From assembly GCA_001304015.1 (NCBI GenBank), contig LJUY01000033.1:1-27503 (forward strand): a DNA stretch of 27,503 nt, given 5' to 3'. Made by a program: the position numbers and the translations under genes. Below are positions 988 through 17,092 of the stretch, in pieces. This DNA comes from a candidate division Zixibacteria bacterium SM23_81. GTDB taxonomy: Bacteria; SM23-81. The stretch's first letter is position 1; each line of letters begins with the position of its first letter. A model generated the notes under the pieces. The model was not told the DNA's origin, searched no databases, and saw nothing but the letters and a program-made list of their open reading frames with translations.

Positions 988-2517
988 CTATTTGGAGTCA
1001 CTTAAAGCTTTGTCAAACTCTCCCACTCTGTTGGACACCGCCGATTCATTATCGCTGCCGTCAATGACGGTGACCACATAGAACAGGTTGGCCACCGGGT
1101 CGCCGATGCGGGCATCGGTGTAGGAAAAATCCAGATCAGAGGTCGTCGCCAGTAGATTCCCCGGCTCTGGCGTGAAGCTTGGATCCTCGTCACAGTAGAT
1201 TCGGTAGTTTATAGGTCCTTTCTCCAGCGAGCCATCCTCCCCGGTGGTCACCTGCTCCCAAGAGAGACAGAGAGTGTTCACCGACCCTTTGGCACTCCCG
1301 GAGGCCAGAATGCCAACCTGTGTCTTAGCCGGATCGATGTTGTCAACTGAATAGCCACTGTCGGGGGCAGAGTCCCAGAAGACGAACAGATTGGTCGTTT
1401 GGGCGGAAACAAGGAAGGTGAAGTATGGAATGCCGCTGGCGGAAGAATCTTCGAGGGTGGGAGCAATATAGGCATAACCCTCAAAAAAATGGGCATTGAC
1501 AGAGCCGAGAAATTCCCAATACTCGATCTTGGTTTCACCGAAACCATTGTTTCTTTCGATACGACGATAGACCAGCTTGGAAGAATCTTTTGGGAGGTTG
1601 CCTTCCCACAGTTCGCCAATCGAAGCGATCTTCGATCCTCCCAGGTGTCTGCGCCAAATGGAGTAGTACGTGATCACTTGATACTCCGGAGCATCGAGAT
1701 AACTGCGATCCCATAAAATGAGCACCTGTTTACCCTGATCATTGGGAACATCGCCGATGGAAACGATATGAGGAACGGGACCCAACACGCCATTCAAATT
1801 GACCCGCTGAGCGTAGATGTCATAACTGCTGGCGCTTCGTGAGTCCTCCCAGGCGATGATGGCCCCCCCGGAACCATCGCCGACCAGCTGAGGGTTTTGT
1901 TGATTATATGCAGCGGTCGAGATGGCCACTCCATCGGTGGGCCAAAGCGTGTCGCCGTTGGCGTTGACCCGCTGAGCGTAGATGTCAAAATTGCTGAGGC
2001 TTCGGTAGTCTTGCCAGGTGATGATGGCCCCCCCGGAGCCATCGCCTATAAGCTGGGGGTAAGATTGATCGGATGCAGCTGTGCAGATGGCCAGGCCATC
2101 GGCGGGCCAGAGGGTGTCGCCGTTGGCGTTGACCCGCTGAGCGTAGATGTCAATGTAGATGCCGCCTCGGTAGTCTTGCCAGGTGATGATGGCCCCCCCG
2201 GAGCCATCGCCGACCAACTGGGGGTAATATTGAGAGGGTGCAGCGGTGCAGATGGCCAGGCCATCGGCGGGCCAAAGCGTGTCGCCGTTGGCGTTGACCC
2301 GCTGAGCGTAGATGTCATAATCGCTGCCGCTTCGGTGGTCTTGCCAGGTGATGATGGCCCCCCCGGAGCCATCGCCGATAAGCTGGGGTCTCATTTGAGG
2401 GTTTGCAGCGGTAGAGATAGGGAGATTTGTATCGGGATCAGTGGGCCACCAGGCGGTGGCGGGGGTGAACAGCAATAAGACCAACGGGAGCCCTGCCATA
2501 AAAGCGGTCGCTCTCAT
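988..2517 (-). CDS. Secreted protein with four 55-residue tandem repeats and a C-terminal Fn3-like domain
   Basis: 509 aa. The ATG at 2517 is preceded by AAGGAGGTGT at good spacing and by a consensus promoter ending 53 nt upstream. A longer ORF start (2598) lies inside that promoter and is rejected. Residues 1-22 are a signal peptide (hydrophobic LPLVLLLF, cleavage near PATA). Residues 44 to about 244 hold three full repeats and one partial repeat of the pattern PQL-GDGSGGAI-TWQD-R ending in DIYAQRVNANGDTLW. Repeats of this kind occur in extracellular proteins of several candidate phyla; a beta-propeller-like fold is my inference. The last 100 residues (LCLSWEQV, NYRIYCDEDP, FYVVTVIDGSDNESAVSN) look like a fibronectin type III domain. 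I see no sorting signal after it. Function is unknown; surface display or carbohydrate binding is possible. It is a single-gene unit with its own promoter and terminator. Confidence 0.82.
   Translation of the reverse strand: MRATAFMAGLPLVLLLFTPATAWWPTDPDTNLPISTAANPQMRPQLIGDGSGGAIITWQDHRSGSDYDIYAQRVNANGDTLWPADGLAICTAAPSQYYPQLVGDGSGGAIITWQDYRGGIYIDIYAQRVNANGDTLWPADGLAICTAASDQSYPQLIGDGSGGAIITWQDYRSLSNFDIYAQRVNANGDTLWPTDGVAISTAAYNQQNPQLVGDGSGGAIIAWEDSRSASSYDIYAQRVNLNGVLGPVPHIVSIGDVPNDQGKQVLILWDRSYLDAPEYQVITYYSIWRRHLGGSKIASIGELWEGNLPKDSSKLVYRRIERNNGFGETKIEYWEFLGSVNAHFFEGYAYIAPTLEDSSASGIPYFTFLVSAQTTNLFVFWDSAPDSGYSVDNIDPAKTQVGILASGSAKGSVNTLCLSWEQVTTGEDGSLEKGPINYRIYCDEDPSFTPEPGNLLATTSDLDFSYTDARIGDPVANLFYVVTVIDGSDNESAVSNRVGEFDKALSDSK
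1786..2388 (-). repeat. 165-bp in-frame tandem repeat (3 full copies and 1 partial)
   Basis: Copies at 2388-2224, 2223-2059, 2058-1894, and a partial at 1893-1786, each encoding 55 residues beginning PQL(I/V)GDGSGG. Nucleotide identity is high, notably in the GDGSGGAI and NANGDTLWP segments, suggesting recent duplication or homogenisation. A half repeat (WWPTDPDTNLPISTAANPQ) sits before copy 1. Confidence 0.9.
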
Positions 2518-3174: not shown

Positions 3175-3195
3175 GCTGTGGTTTCTTTGTCTTTT

Positions 3196-3230
3196 ACGAT
3201 TAACGATCAACGATACACGATTCACGATAT
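3196..3230. repeat. Heptanucleotide array, 5 units of ACGATNN
   Basis: Five consecutive 7-bp units: ACGATTA, ACGATCA, ACGATAC, ACGATTC, ACGATAT. ACGATTA is a rotation of the reverse complement of CGTTAAT, the unit at 10148-10203, so both arrays belong to one family in opposite orientation. They resemble the short tandemly repeated repetitive (STRR) sequences known from cyanobacteria. Confidence 0.85.
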
Positions 3231-3300
3231 AAGCTTCGAGGTTCGTTTATTATCAGGATGAACCCACCCGATGACACGATAAGAGGTCTTTATAAAGTCT

Positions 3301-3350
3301 CTGGATTCCCGTCCCCGCTTTCGCGGGGACAAGCTTCCGCGGGAATGACG
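3301..3350 (+). repeat. 50-bp dispersed element, copy 1
   Basis: Begins CTGGATTCCCG, ends CGGGAATGACG, and contains an internal GTCCCCGC...GCGGGGAC stem and AAGCTTC. It is nearly identical to the reverse complement of 14791-14840. Elements of the GGATTCCCG...CGGGAATGAC type are widespread intergenic repeats in many bacteria. Nesting of the two inverted repeats suggests a REP- or MITE-like unit. Confidence 0.85.
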
Positions 3351-3370
3351 GATAAGAGAGACTGATCAAA

Positions 3371-3419
3371 TCTCGAATCTCGATTCACGATCGACAATTC
3401 ACGATTCACGATTCACGTC
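3371..3419. repeat. Heptanucleotide array, 7 units of TCACGAT type
   Basis: Seven 7-bp units in phase (TCTCGAA, TCTCGAT, TCACGAT, CGACAAT, TCACGAT, TCACGAT, TCACGTC). It is related to the array at 3196-3230 (ACGATTC rotated) and ends 36 bp from the cdsA stop codon. Confidence 0.85.
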
Positions 3420-9086: not shown

Positions 9087-10133
9087 TCACCCGCGCTGTT
9101 TCATACGCGATAAACTTCTGTCATAGGGAGCTGTGAAAACCCCCGCTTCTGTGACAATGCCTGATATCAGATTTGCCGGGGTCACATCGAAGGCCGGACT
9201 GTACACGGGAACACCATGGGGCGCCATACTACGACCGCAGATCTCCGTAACTTCCTGAGCGTCTCGCTCCTCGATGGGGATTTCCTCCCCGCTGGCCAAC
9301 TGAAAATCCAACGTAGAGGAGGGAGCGGCCACGTACAAAGGCAGATGGTGCTTCTCGCACAGAACGGCCAAATTATATGTTCCTATTTTGTTGGCCACGT
9401 CCCCGTTGGCGGCTATACGATCGGCACCCACTATGGCGAGATCCACTTTGCCCTGTGACATCAATCGACCTGCGGCGTTATCGCAGATGAGAGTCACTGG
9501 AATGCCAGCCTGCATCAGCTCCCATGCGGTCAACCGAGCTCCCTGAAGCAGTGGTCTGGTCTCATCGGCATATACCGCGATCTTCTTGCCCATCTCATGC
9601 GCCACATAGAGGATGCCCAGGGCCGTTCCAATCCCCCCCGTGGCCAATCGACCGGCATTGCAGTGAGTCAGTATCCTGGCTCCATCCTTCAACAGCTGTT
9701 GGCCGTTTTCCCCTATGTGACGACAGAGACTGGCATCCTCCTGGTGAATGGCCTGAGCCTCCTGTAGAAGTGCCCCTTTGATCTCCGTGATAGAAGCATC
9801 CCTGTGCTTCTCGGCCACGGCTCTAAGGCGCCCCAGTGCCCAGGGAAGATTGACGGCGGTAGGTCTGGTGGAACGCATCAGGTCCAAGACTCGCCCCATC
9901 TCTCCCTGCAACTTCTTAAAGGATTCCGCGGAGGATTTCTGCAGGCCCAGGACAATCCCATAAGCGGCGGCGATTCCTATGGCTGGCGCGCCCCTGATAC
10001 GCAGTGTGCGGATGGCCTCGGCCATCTCCTCTGCCGTGTCACAACGGTGCAGTATTAGCTCCTCGGGCAGCCTGGTTTGATCGATCATCACCACATGATC
10101 GTCTTGCCAAGCGATGGTTGGAGGATCGAACAT
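9087..10133 (-). CDS. mtnA: S-methyl-5-thioribose-1-phosphate isomerase (eIF-2B-like)
   Basis: 348 aa. The family converts methylthioribose-1-phosphate to the ribulose form in methionine salvage. Conserved features: TLRIRGAPAIGIAAAYG (residues 43-59), ILTHCNAGRLATGG with catalytic Cys158, and IVGADRIAANGDVANKIGTY with catalytic Asp238. Both catalytic residues of the family are present, separating it from regulatory eIF2B subunits. The ATG at 10133 (MFDPPTIAWQDD) has AAAGG upstream; the 15 extra codons of a longer ORF are a translation of the adjacent CGTTAAT array. No other methionine-salvage gene lies in the window. It sits between the pyr-type operon and the rplM promoter, with no convincing terminator behind it. 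Confidence 0.93.
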   Translation of the reverse strand: MFDPPTIAWQDDHVVMIDQTRLPEELILHRCDTAEEMAEAIRTLRIRGAPAIGIAAAYGIVLGLQKSSAESFKKLQGEMGRVLDLMRSTRPTAVNLPWALGRLRAVAEKHRDASITEIKGALLQEAQAIHQEDASLCRHIGENGQQLLKDGARILTHCNAGRLATGGIGTALGILYVAHEMGKKIAVYADETRPLLQGARLTAWELMQAGIPVTLICDNAAGRLMSQGKVDLAIVGADRIAANGDVANKIGTYNLAVLCEKHHLPLYVAAPSSTLDFQLASGEEIPIEERDAQEVTEICGRSMAPHGVPVYSPAFDVTPANLISGIVTEAGVFTAPYDRSLSRMKQRG

Positions 10134-10147
10134 GATTTTACCTTTTT

Positions 10148-10259
10148 CGTTAATCGGTAATCGTTTATCGTTAATCATGTATCGTTAATGGTTTATCGTT
10201 AATCGAGACTAGAGACTCGGAAAAGACCCGGAACAGGGGTCCGGGAACCGGGATCCGTA
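10148..10259. repeat. Heptanucleotide array, 16 units in phase
   Basis: Eight units of CGTTAAT type (10148-10203: CGTTAAT, CGGTAAT, CGTTTAT, CGTTAAT, CATGTAT, CGTTAAT, GGTTTAT, CGTTAAT) continue in the same 7-bp phase into a second, GC-rich unit family (CGAGACT, AGAGACT, then AACAGGG, GTCCGGG, AACCGGG) up to 10259. It ends 14 bp from the mtnA start. Confidence 0.88.
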
Positions 10260-10264
10260 AAAAG

Positions 10265-10306
10265 CTGCCTATTTTTTGCTGCTTCCTGCTTACTGCCTAC
10301 TGGGGC
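10265..10306. repeat. Heptanucleotide array, CTGCTTA type
   Basis: Six 7-bp units: CTGCCTA, TTTTTTG, CTGCTTC, CTGCTTA, CTGCCTA, CTGGGGC. It lies 5 bp beyond the preceding array and has a different unit. Together the two fill most of the 195-bp gap between the YjbQ-like gene and mtnA. Confidence 0.8.
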
Positions 10307-10328: not shown

Positions 10329-10748
10329 TCACTCCCCCATCAGTTGCACCAAAATCTCCCTCCGGCGGGGTCGGTTATCGAAATCCAGAAACACGATCTG
10401 CTGCCAGGTGCCCAAGGTCAGCTTTCCACTCACAAAGGGAGCGGTAAAGGAAGTACCTACGAGAGAGGAGCGGAGATGGGCATGACCGTTGCCATCGTGC
10501 CAGGTGTCGTCGTGGTGATAGCGTTGCCCAGAGGGAATGAGCTTATCCATGATCTCCGGGAGGTCACGTCTCAGCCCCGGCTCGAACTCCAATGTGGTGA
10601 TGCCTCCCGTGGAGCCGGAGATAAACACCGTGGCTATGCCATTTTTGAAACCACTTTGCTCCAGGGCCTGGGCCACCTGGGGGGTGATGTCCACCACGTC
10701 AGCGGAGCCTTGCGTCTCAATGGTAAAAGACTGCGTTGAAACCGACAT
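10329..10748 (-). CDS. YjbQ family protein (UPF0047)
   Basis: 139 aa, the usual length of this small family. The diagnostic block is clear: FISGSTGGITTLEFEPGL, then RYHHDDTWHDGNGHAHLRSSLVG, and LGTWQQIVFLDFDNRPRRREILVQL. The clustered His residues match the family's presumed active or metal site; thiamine-phosphate-synthase-like side activity has been reported for members, but the physiological role is uncertain. The ATG at 10748 has GGGAG 6 nt upstream; an upstream ATG at 10772 lacks one. It lies 45 bp after the LUD-domain gene, probably at the end of the pyr transcript. Confidence 0.9.
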   Translation of the reverse strand: MSVSTQSFTIETQGSADVVDITPQVAQALEQSGFKNGIATVFISGSTGGITTLEFEPGLRRDLPEIMDKLIPSGQRYHHDDTWHDGNGHAHLRSSLVGTSFTAPFVSGKLTLGTWQQIVFLDFDNRPRRREILVQLMGE

Positions 10749-10793
10749 CTCCAACTCCCTTCGGCCATACATATAGAAGAGTTCCGAAAACCC

Positions 10794-14430: not shown

Positions 14431-14500
14431 GATGCTGGAAGCTCGTTTATCGGTGTGGAAGCTGGTATCGAAACTGGAAACTGGAAGCTCGATGCTGGAG
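14431..14500. repeat. Heptanucleotide array, GAAACTG/GATGCTG type
   Basis: About ten 7-bp units; the clearest are GAAACTG, GAAACTG, GAAGCTC, GATGCTG at 14470-14497, and GATGCTG, GAAGCTC at 14431-14444. It lies just upstream of the pyr promoter. Confidence 0.78.
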
Positions 14501-14667: not shown

Positions 14668-14695
14668 GTAGGGGCGTATTGCAATACGCCCCTAC
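14668..14695. repeat. 28-bp perfect palindrome of the GTAGGGGC type
   Basis: GTAGGGGCGTATTG followed directly by its reverse complement. It shares the GGGGCG...CGCCCCTAC ends with the palindrome at 14727-14746 but has a different centre, the pattern of an intergenic palindromic repeat family. Confidence 0.85.
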
Positions 14696-14726: not shown

Positions 14727-14746
14727 GGGCGCAGCATGCTGCGCCC
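14727..14746. repeat. 20-bp perfect palindrome, same family as 14668-14695
   Basis: GGGCGCAGCATGCTGCGCCC, followed by CTAC as in the neighbouring palindrome. The centre (AGCATGCT) differs from that of the first (TATTGCAATA). Confidence 0.82.
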
Positions 14747-14790
14747 CTACTACTGCGTGACGCTCCCTATCATTCCTGTCTTATCCCCAC

Positions 14791-14840
14791 TGTCATTCCC
14801 ACGAAGCTTGTCCCCGCGAAGGCGGGGAGCGGGAATCCAG
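14791..14840 (-). repeat. 50-bp dispersed element, copy 2 (inverted relative to copy 1)
   Basis: Read on the minus strand it starts CTGGATTCCCG and ends GGGAATGACA, with the internal CCCCGC...GCGGGGACAAGCTTC block. It matches 3301-3350 nearly base for base with a one-base insertion. It abuts the stop codon of the GIY-YIG-like remnant at 14843. Confidence 0.85.
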
Positions 14841-16847: not shown

Positions 16848-16928
16848 TCCCCGATTCCTCAATCCCCGATCTTGGATCCTCTGCCCCCGATTCCCACCCA
16901 TCCCCGATCCTAGATACTAGATCCTGGA
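16848..16928. repeat. Degenerate heptanucleotide array, TCCCCGA/TCCTAGA type
   Basis: Runs of 7-bp units such as TCCCCGA, TCTTGGA, TCCTCTG, CCCCCGA (16863-16890) and TCCCCGA, TCCTAGA, TACTAGA, TCCTGGA (16901-16928), with small phase shifts. It fills the leader just upstream of the ECF ATPase start. Confidence 0.72.
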
Positions 16929-16953
16929 TGCGAAGCAGGTGCATGAATTGTGA

Positions 16954-16999
16954 CGTAATGCGTAATACGTAATTTCCCTTCGCATTACGAATTACGTAC
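16954..16999. repeat. Two inverted heptanucleotide arrays of CGTAATN type
   Basis: CGTAATG, CGTAATA, CGTAATT (16954-16974) face CGCATTA, CGAATTA, CGT (16981-16997). A 12-position stem with one mismatch can form (16962-16973 with 16984-16995) around a 10-nt loop. Confidence 0.8.
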
Positions 17000-17057
17000 T
17001 GCGATCTGAACAAATTTTCAAGATCTAGCATGGAGCGTCAGGTGACTTTAGGTTTTT

Positions 17058-17092
17058 CCTAGCATCTAGAATCCAGAATCCAGCATCCAGAA
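17058..17092. repeat. Heptanucleotide array, 5 units of TTCTGGA type
   Basis: On the minus strand TTCTGGA, TGCTGGA, TTCTGGA, TTCTAGA, TGCTAGG in exact phase. It lies 13 bp beyond the stop codon of the methyltransferase gene at 17106. Confidence 0.88.

What the first reader, a model, noticed from the sequence alone, without database searches (positions are those of the whole stretch)
10148..10306. Sixteen in-phase heptamer units that switch unit family without losing phase
The CGTTAAT array passes directly into an unrelated GC-rich series while keeping the 7-bp period for 112 bp, and a third type (CTGCTTA) begins 5 bp later. Phase retention across unlike units suggests growth by a mechanism that counts 7 bp, not simple slippage of one unit.
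Basis: seen in the sequence. Interest (0 to 1): 0.6.

Follow-up and report, generated by a model that had tools for sequence, protein, structure and literature searches.

The report
Mosaic seven-base intergenic DNA repeats
The gap between two genes holds short blocks of seven-base repeats, one of many such blocks scattered between the genes of this little-known bacterium; seven-base repeats are a known bacterial habit, but here neighbouring copies are unusually often non-identical, which plain copy-slippage does not predict.

Summary
The repeats are real. At 10148-10306 the lag-7 identity is 0.566 against 0.248 in shuffles (z 9.3). Seven is also the top lag in the genome's intergenic DNA: 101 lag-7 arrays in 136 kb, against 1-15 at the other non-multiple lags and 0-1 in shuffles. 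The genus-level relative G001 shows the same.

'Sixteen units in one phase' is overstated. The period breaks at 10218-10231 (adjacent-unit identity 2/7, then 0/7), and the CG anchor moves from phase 5 to 2 to 1. Genome-wide, phase is kept only between abutting or near-abutting related units; beyond 15 bp it is lost even for one family. Simulated 7-bp slippage with point mutation makes in-phase family drift, so phase alone does not argue against slippage.

Most likely this is a member of the known class of bacterial intergenic heptamer repeats, in a multi-family degenerate form. Array sites are conserved between genera while units turn over, and there is no strand or positional bias. The surprise is that adjacent units share a core but are rarely identical, while identical units recur two apart. 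This holds in both genomes and partly replicated on unseen contigs, but not in unrelated contigs with the same or similar words. It suggests two-unit (14-bp) copying or purging of identical neighbours.

The parts
10147..10205 (-). AT-rich heptamer block; unit ATTAACG (CGATTAA family) read on the - strand, CGTTAAT on +; alternates CGTTAAT with CGTTTAT/CATGTAT/GGTTTAT (period 14)
10204..10219 (+). CGAGACT-type units, in phase with the CGTTAAT block
10225..10258 (+). GC-rich CCGGGAACCGGGATCC block, out of phase with the AT block; the same word family sits at the orthologous place in G001
10227..10245 (-). terminator-like hairpin CCCGGA-CCCCTGT-TCCGGG followed by TCTTTT, downstream of yjbQ; made of GC-block units
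   Evidence: 1 found, 0.4 expected, so weak
10276..10302 (+). third block, CTGCTTA/CTGCCTA units (GCAGTAG family on -)
9087..10133 (-). mtnA, S-methyl-5-thioribose-1-phosphate isomerase; the array lies in its upstream region
10329..10772 (-). yjbQ family gene, upstream neighbour of the array
3193..3245 (+). another array of the CGATTAA/CGATTCA family
3366..3417 (+). array drifting in phase from TCAAATC to ACGATTC
14470..14499 (+). GAAACTG array
16906..16929 (+). GATCCTA/GATACTA array
16953..17003 (+). ACGTAAT array followed by its own reverse complement
17059..17090 (+). CCAGAAT/CCAGCAT array

Best explanation
The region is non-coding, degenerate heptamer repeat DNA, one of roughly 200 such arrays in the genome (101 seen in 1.39 of 3.07 Mb; the total is extrapolated). 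Arrays arise in unconstrained intergenic DNA by misaligned copying in 7-bp steps and multiples. A 7-nt loop is too long for MutS/MutL mismatch repair (established knowledge; both genes are present here), so the steps are not corrected. Each array starts from one of a few core words and drifts by point mutation, which yields in-phase gradual unit change. Separate seedings next to each other give the blocks of unlike units seen here. In this lineage, either copying mainly adds two units (14 bp) at a time or identical neighbours are preferentially deleted, leaving mosaics in which neighbours differ at wobble positions and identical units recur two apart. Shown here: the 7-bp specificity, the many families, the intergenic location, the site conservation with unit turnover, and the lack of strand and position bias. 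Moderately supported: the neighbour anti-similarity. Inferred: misaligned copying as the cause, the 14-bp step or purging, and the absence of function.
For: Lags 7, 14 and 21 lead in intergenic DNA. 101 arrays at lag 7 against 1-15 at the other non-multiple lags and 0-1 in shuffles; G001 has 45 against 0-8. The CGANTC-type families split 18 sense to 18 antisense, and array positions are spread evenly across intergenic regions. Orthologous gaps in G000 and G001: arrays in both 4, in G001 only 2, in G000 only 0, in neither 35 (p 1.5e-4; 0.0063 when both gaps are at least 150 bp), with different units. MutS and MutL are intact and no reverse transcriptase was found. Exact/6-match excess ratio at 1, 2, 3, 4 units: G000 0.13, 0.27, 0.15, 0.44; G001 0.13, 0.50, 0.14, 1.18; bootstrap for distance 2 over distance 1: P 0.0007 and 0.0027. 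Unseen G001 contigs: 20 of 78 identical neighbours against 41% expected, p 0.003. A 14-bp-step simulation gives 0.07, 0.57, 0.09, 0.50.
Against: The wobble pattern (fixed CGA or CCAG.AT core, variation at set positions) is also what selection on a recognition motif would leave. Recurrence of the same few words at many loci is not explained by slippage alone. The alternation statistic was found post hoc: an earlier array-level version was marginal (P 0.07 and 0.16, combined 0.03; sign count 42 to 48), distance 2 over distance 3 is P about 0.04 in each genome, and one pair per array gives p 0.08. No growth or loss event was observed directly.
Confidence: 0.55

Rival explanations
1. The arrays are binding sites: a protein recognises the core (CGA.., CCAG.AT) with wobble positions free, and selection keeps cores while neighbours vary.
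For: Differences between neighbours concentrate on wobble positions in most words tested (e.g. CGATTAA p 5e-15; CCAGTAT 13 of 14 differences at one position). Array sites are conserved between genera.
Against: At least eight unlike families; no orientation bias (18:18 for the CGANTC-type families) and no preference for start codons; families change at the same locus between genera. Free positions alone predict independent neighbours, not fewer identical ones than independence.
Confidence: 0.18
2. Arrays are spread as ready-made pieces (recombination between arrays, gene conversion or mobile elements) rather than growing in place.
For: The same words recur at dozens of loci in a genome. The GCAGTAG word is amplified in an unrelated complete genome (88 matches, control 0) and in 66 IMG/VR stretches against 5 and 8 for control words. 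Three Y1 transposase-type genes are present.
Against: No conserved flanks or common ends were seen around the arrays inspected. Block order and phase vary. CGAATCT is no more widely shared across phyla than its reversed control word.
Confidence: 0.15
3. A templated enzyme (telomerase-like reverse transcriptase) adds 7-nt units, counting 7 by its template.
For: Constant 7-bp step over unlike sequences and low unit identity.
Against: No RVT_1 (PF00078) match in the genome, which is 92.6% complete; the control genomes do ring. Phase is lost between blocks.
Confidence: 0.02
4. Chance, base composition or an assembly artefact.
For: MAG in 99 contigs; assemblers can mishandle perfect tandem repeats, which could thin out identical neighbours.
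Against: Shuffles give 0-1 arrays against 101. The independent relative G001 agrees. IMG/VR contigs, mostly metagenome assemblies, keep perfect arrays. Repeats of two or three units are shorter than a read.
Confidence: 0.04

Closest known systems
GGGAATC repeats of Xanthomonas and GGGGA(C/T)T repeats of Nostoc (Rehm et al. 2015, PMC4692102)
   Same: 7-bp unit, intergenic, heterogeneous units (GGGANTN) with a fixed core, mostly at the same gene gaps in related species with length and sequence variation, no clear function; one of our blocks (CGGGATC/CGGGAAC) resembles the word
   Different: One G-rich family per genome there; here many families, several in one gap, and neighbours avoid identity
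TAACTGA direct repeats of marine Beggiatoaceae, Cyanobacteria and Bacteroidetes (MacGregor 2015, PMC4679880)
   Same: Intergenic heptamer arrays; the same word found in distant phyla; in Microcystis mixed with other heptamers
   Different: There most sit just upstream of start codons and related words are rarely repeated; here no positional or strand preference and related words are the rule
Long simple sequence repeats of prokaryotes (Mrazek et al. 2007, PNAS; known here only as cited in PMC4679880 and PMC4692102)
   Same: Heptanucleotides are the commonest class in many genomes; 7 nt proposed as the stretch that interacts with DNA polymerase
   Different: That survey concerns statistically long repeats; here units are degenerate and rarely exact
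Borg tandem repeats (PMC9879509)
   Same: Many recent tandem repeat regions scattered over a genome
   Different: Found in archaeal extrachromosomal elements; compared here only by abstract, unit lengths not compared

Membership tests
Bacterial intergenic heptamer repeats (long SSR class) | 7 bp is the dominant tandem period in intergenic DNA, above shuffles and other lags | tested here: met
Bacterial intergenic heptamer repeats (long SSR class) | Concentrated between genes | tested here: met
   101 in 136 kb intergenic against 33 in 1.26 Mb called coding (crude ORF calls)
Bacterial intergenic heptamer repeats (long SSR class) | Copy number varies between strains | not testable with these tools
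   no second strain held
Xanthomonas GGGAATC-type repeats | One dominant G-rich word with fixed core and wobble | tested here: not met
   many families, though each has a core and wobble
Xanthomonas GGGAATC-type repeats | Same gene gaps carry repeats in related species while sequence varies | tested here: met
Beggiatoaceae TAACTGA-type repeats | Word TAACTGA, close upstream of start codons, related words not repeated | tested here: not met
Simple 7-bp slippage arrays | Neighbouring units more often identical than units further apart | tested here: not met
   exact identity relative to near-identity lower at distance 1 than 2 in G000 and G001; met in the unrelated GCAGTAG set
Reverse-transcriptase-templated repeat addition | A reverse transcriptase in the genome | tested here: not met
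   (genome 92.6% complete)

The most novel reading that the evidence does not exclude
In this lineage the heptamer arrays grow in two-unit (14-bp) steps from pairs of non-identical heptamers, or actively avoid identical neighbours, so that 7-bp periodicity is a half-unit of a hidden 14-bp heterodimeric repeat; this would be a distinct mode of tandem repeat growth in bacteria.
Probability: 0.35. Interest if true: 0.6.

Novelty: new variant of a known kind. Interest (0 to 1): 0.4.

Why it matters
Why heptamers dominate bacterial tandem repeats has been open since at least 2007, and the papers read here offer mainly the polymerase-contact idea. A genome with many unlike heptamer families, conserved sites and a measurable neighbour pattern offers a test: models of 7-bp slippage, 14-bp copying and purging of identical neighbours predict different identity patterns at one, two, three and four units. 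If the two-unit step holds, the question becomes what machinery copies 14 bp at a time.

Tried and rejected
RNA structure of the gap: folds no better than shuffles (z +1.03). Known RNA families and tRNAs: none in the window. Promoter scan: none. Telomerase-like addition: no reverse transcriptase. Mismatch-repair loss as driver: MutS and MutL present. Shared words as evidence of horizontal spread: CGAATCT is no commoner across 290 genomes than its reversed word, though GCAGTAG is special. Phase across unlike blocks: chance beyond 15 bp. A first set of simulations let the arrays die out and was uninformative.

Full report
The window is contig 33 (G000:C33) of a 3.07 Mb draft genome in 99 contigs, 92.6% complete. 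Only three genomes of the same phylum were found among the relatives searched: G001 in the same family, and G002 and G003 more distant. The best named match to its ribosomal protein S2 is candidate division TA06 bacterium SM23_40 at 63% identity. The finding lies between yjbQ and mtnA, both on the minus strand.

Observation. The lag-7 signal is strong over 10148-10306 (0.566 against 0.248 in shuffles, z 9.3) and present in each of the three parts. The claim of sixteen units in one phase does not hold. CGTTAAT passes in phase into CGAGACT, but the next junctions share 2/7 and 0/7 positions, an 11-bp spacing appears, and the CG anchor moves from residue 5 to 2 to 1 modulo 7 (positions read). So there are three or four blocks: an AT block with its CGAGACT extension, a GC block in another phase, and the CTGCTTA block.

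Genome-wide test. In 735 kb of the genome the top intergenic lags are 7, 14 and 21 (z 19.0, 9.8, 6.7). In 1.39 Mb there are 101 lag-7 arrays in 136 kb of intergenic DNA, against 1-15 at the other non-multiple lags and 0-1 in shuffles; G001 has 45 against 0-8. Bacilli, Clostridia and Gemmatimonadota loci show no such arrays, while some Nitrospirae and Desulfobacterales loci do. Intergenic calls rest on a crude ORF finder (ORFs of 90 codons or more), so some of the 33 'coding' arrays may lie in false ORFs.

Phase. Adjacent blocks of the same or related units keep phase when at most 14 bp apart. Beyond 15 bp none of 21 same or related pairs is best in phase, and unlike pairs are at chance. The unrelated IMG/VR set behaves similarly, although its unlike abutting pairs are not significant. 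Simulated slippage plus mutation makes in-phase drift to unlike units without any counting machinery, so phase retention is weak evidence of mechanism.

Units. Each family has a fixed core and wobble positions: around CGATTCA the differences between neighbours fall on positions 4-7, and around CCAGTAT 13 of 14 fall on position 5. The CGANTC-type families show no strand preference (18:18), and array positions are even across the gap. Different words dominate in the two genera: the CCAGNAT pattern has 76 matches in G001 and 3 in G000.

Orthologous gaps. Among 41 conserved adjacent gene pairs, arrays occur in both genomes at 4, in G001 alone at 2, in G000 alone at 0, and in neither at 35 (Fisher p 1.5e-4; 0.0063 for gaps of at least 150 bp). 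The mtnA gap of G001 carries CGAATCC-CGGATCC-CGAACCC-CGGTTCC, three CGAATCT units and an AATGAAA stretch. The GC-rich family sits in the matching place, but the other blocks differ. This is what Rehm et al. describe for Xanthomonas (PMC4692102).

Neighbour pattern. Exact neighbours are rare: CGATTCA 2 of 47 near neighbours, CGATTAA 2 of 37, CCAGTAT 0 of 14, against 316 of 463 for GCAGTAG in unrelated contigs. A whole-intergenic measure, exact over 6-of-7 matches in excess of background, gives 0.13, 0.27, 0.15, 0.44 at distances of one to four units in G000 and 0.13, 0.50, 0.14, 1.18 in G001; bootstrap over gaps gives P 0.0007 and 0.0027 for distance 2 above distance 1. Unrelated contigs chosen for GCAGTAG, CCAGNAT or CGATNNA give ratios of 0.6-1.2 without zigzag. 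On G001 contigs not used before, CGANTCN neighbours are identical at the wobble base in 20 of 78 pairs against 41% expected (p 0.003), and in 48% two apart; one pair per array gives 20 of 64, p 0.08. For CCAGNAT in G001, neighbours are identical in 17 of 76 pairs against 27% expected, which is compatible with independence; in unrelated contigs the same core gives 72% against 36% expected. An earlier array-level test was only marginal. I therefore treat the rarity of identical neighbours as well supported and the two-unit zigzag as moderately supported.

Models. Growth by 7-bp slippage with or without later mutation gives falling or nearly flat ratios. Deletion of identical neighbours gives low, then higher, without zigzag. 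Growth in 14-bp steps from a heterodimer followed by mutation gives 0.07, 0.57, 0.09, 0.50, closest to the data.

Known context. Heptanucleotides as the commonest long repeats of bacteria and the polymerase-contact idea are cited in PMC4679880 and PMC4692102; the 2007 paper itself was not held. Mixed heptamers in Microcystis are mentioned there too. I found no report of neighbour avoidance or two-unit alternation in six searches of the held library, which lacks most subscription papers.

Verdict. An ordinary kind of sequence in an extreme, multi-family form, with one unexpected statistical property worth a proper test.

Noticed in passing
window 3322-3349 (-): GTCATTCCCGCGGAAGCTTGTCCCCGCG, a palindrome-like dispersed repeat with at least two further copies in the genome (C79, C94); a related sequence is visible near 14783-14840. 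The genome also has three Y1_Tnp-type genes, so a REP/RAYT-like pair is possible.
   Followed up: partly
window 14668-14695: Perfect 28-bp palindrome GTAGGGGCGTATTG/CAATACGCCCCTAC, with another palindrome GGGCGCAGCATGCTGCGCCC at 14727-14746; a similar GGGCGAGG...CCTCGCCC element is seen in L161 near 13790.
   Followed up: partly
window 16953-17003: A heptamer array (ACGTAAT) followed by its own reverse complement, able to form a long hairpin; inverted arrays are also reported in Xanthomonas.
   Followed up: partly
window 1799-2388: 165-bp tandem repeat, 3.6 copies, inside a large secreted-looking protein gene with GDGSGGAIITWQDYR repeats.
   Followed up: no
L030 5247-5330: A 27-bp exact tandem duplication of a piece holding several heptamer families (one 27-bp case counted; sequence), which shifts the phase by one base: duplications not a multiple of 7 also occur.
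   Followed up: partly
G050 (whole genome handle): An unrelated complete 5.0 Mb genome has 88 GCAGTAG array matches, nearly all perfect; the same word is over-represented in IMG/VR contigs (66 stretches against 5 and 8 for control words).
   Followed up: partly
window 9087-10178: The longest ORF for mtnA runs 45 bases into the heptamer array; the likely start is ATG at 10133 with an AAAGG ribosome site at the array edge.
   Followed up: no
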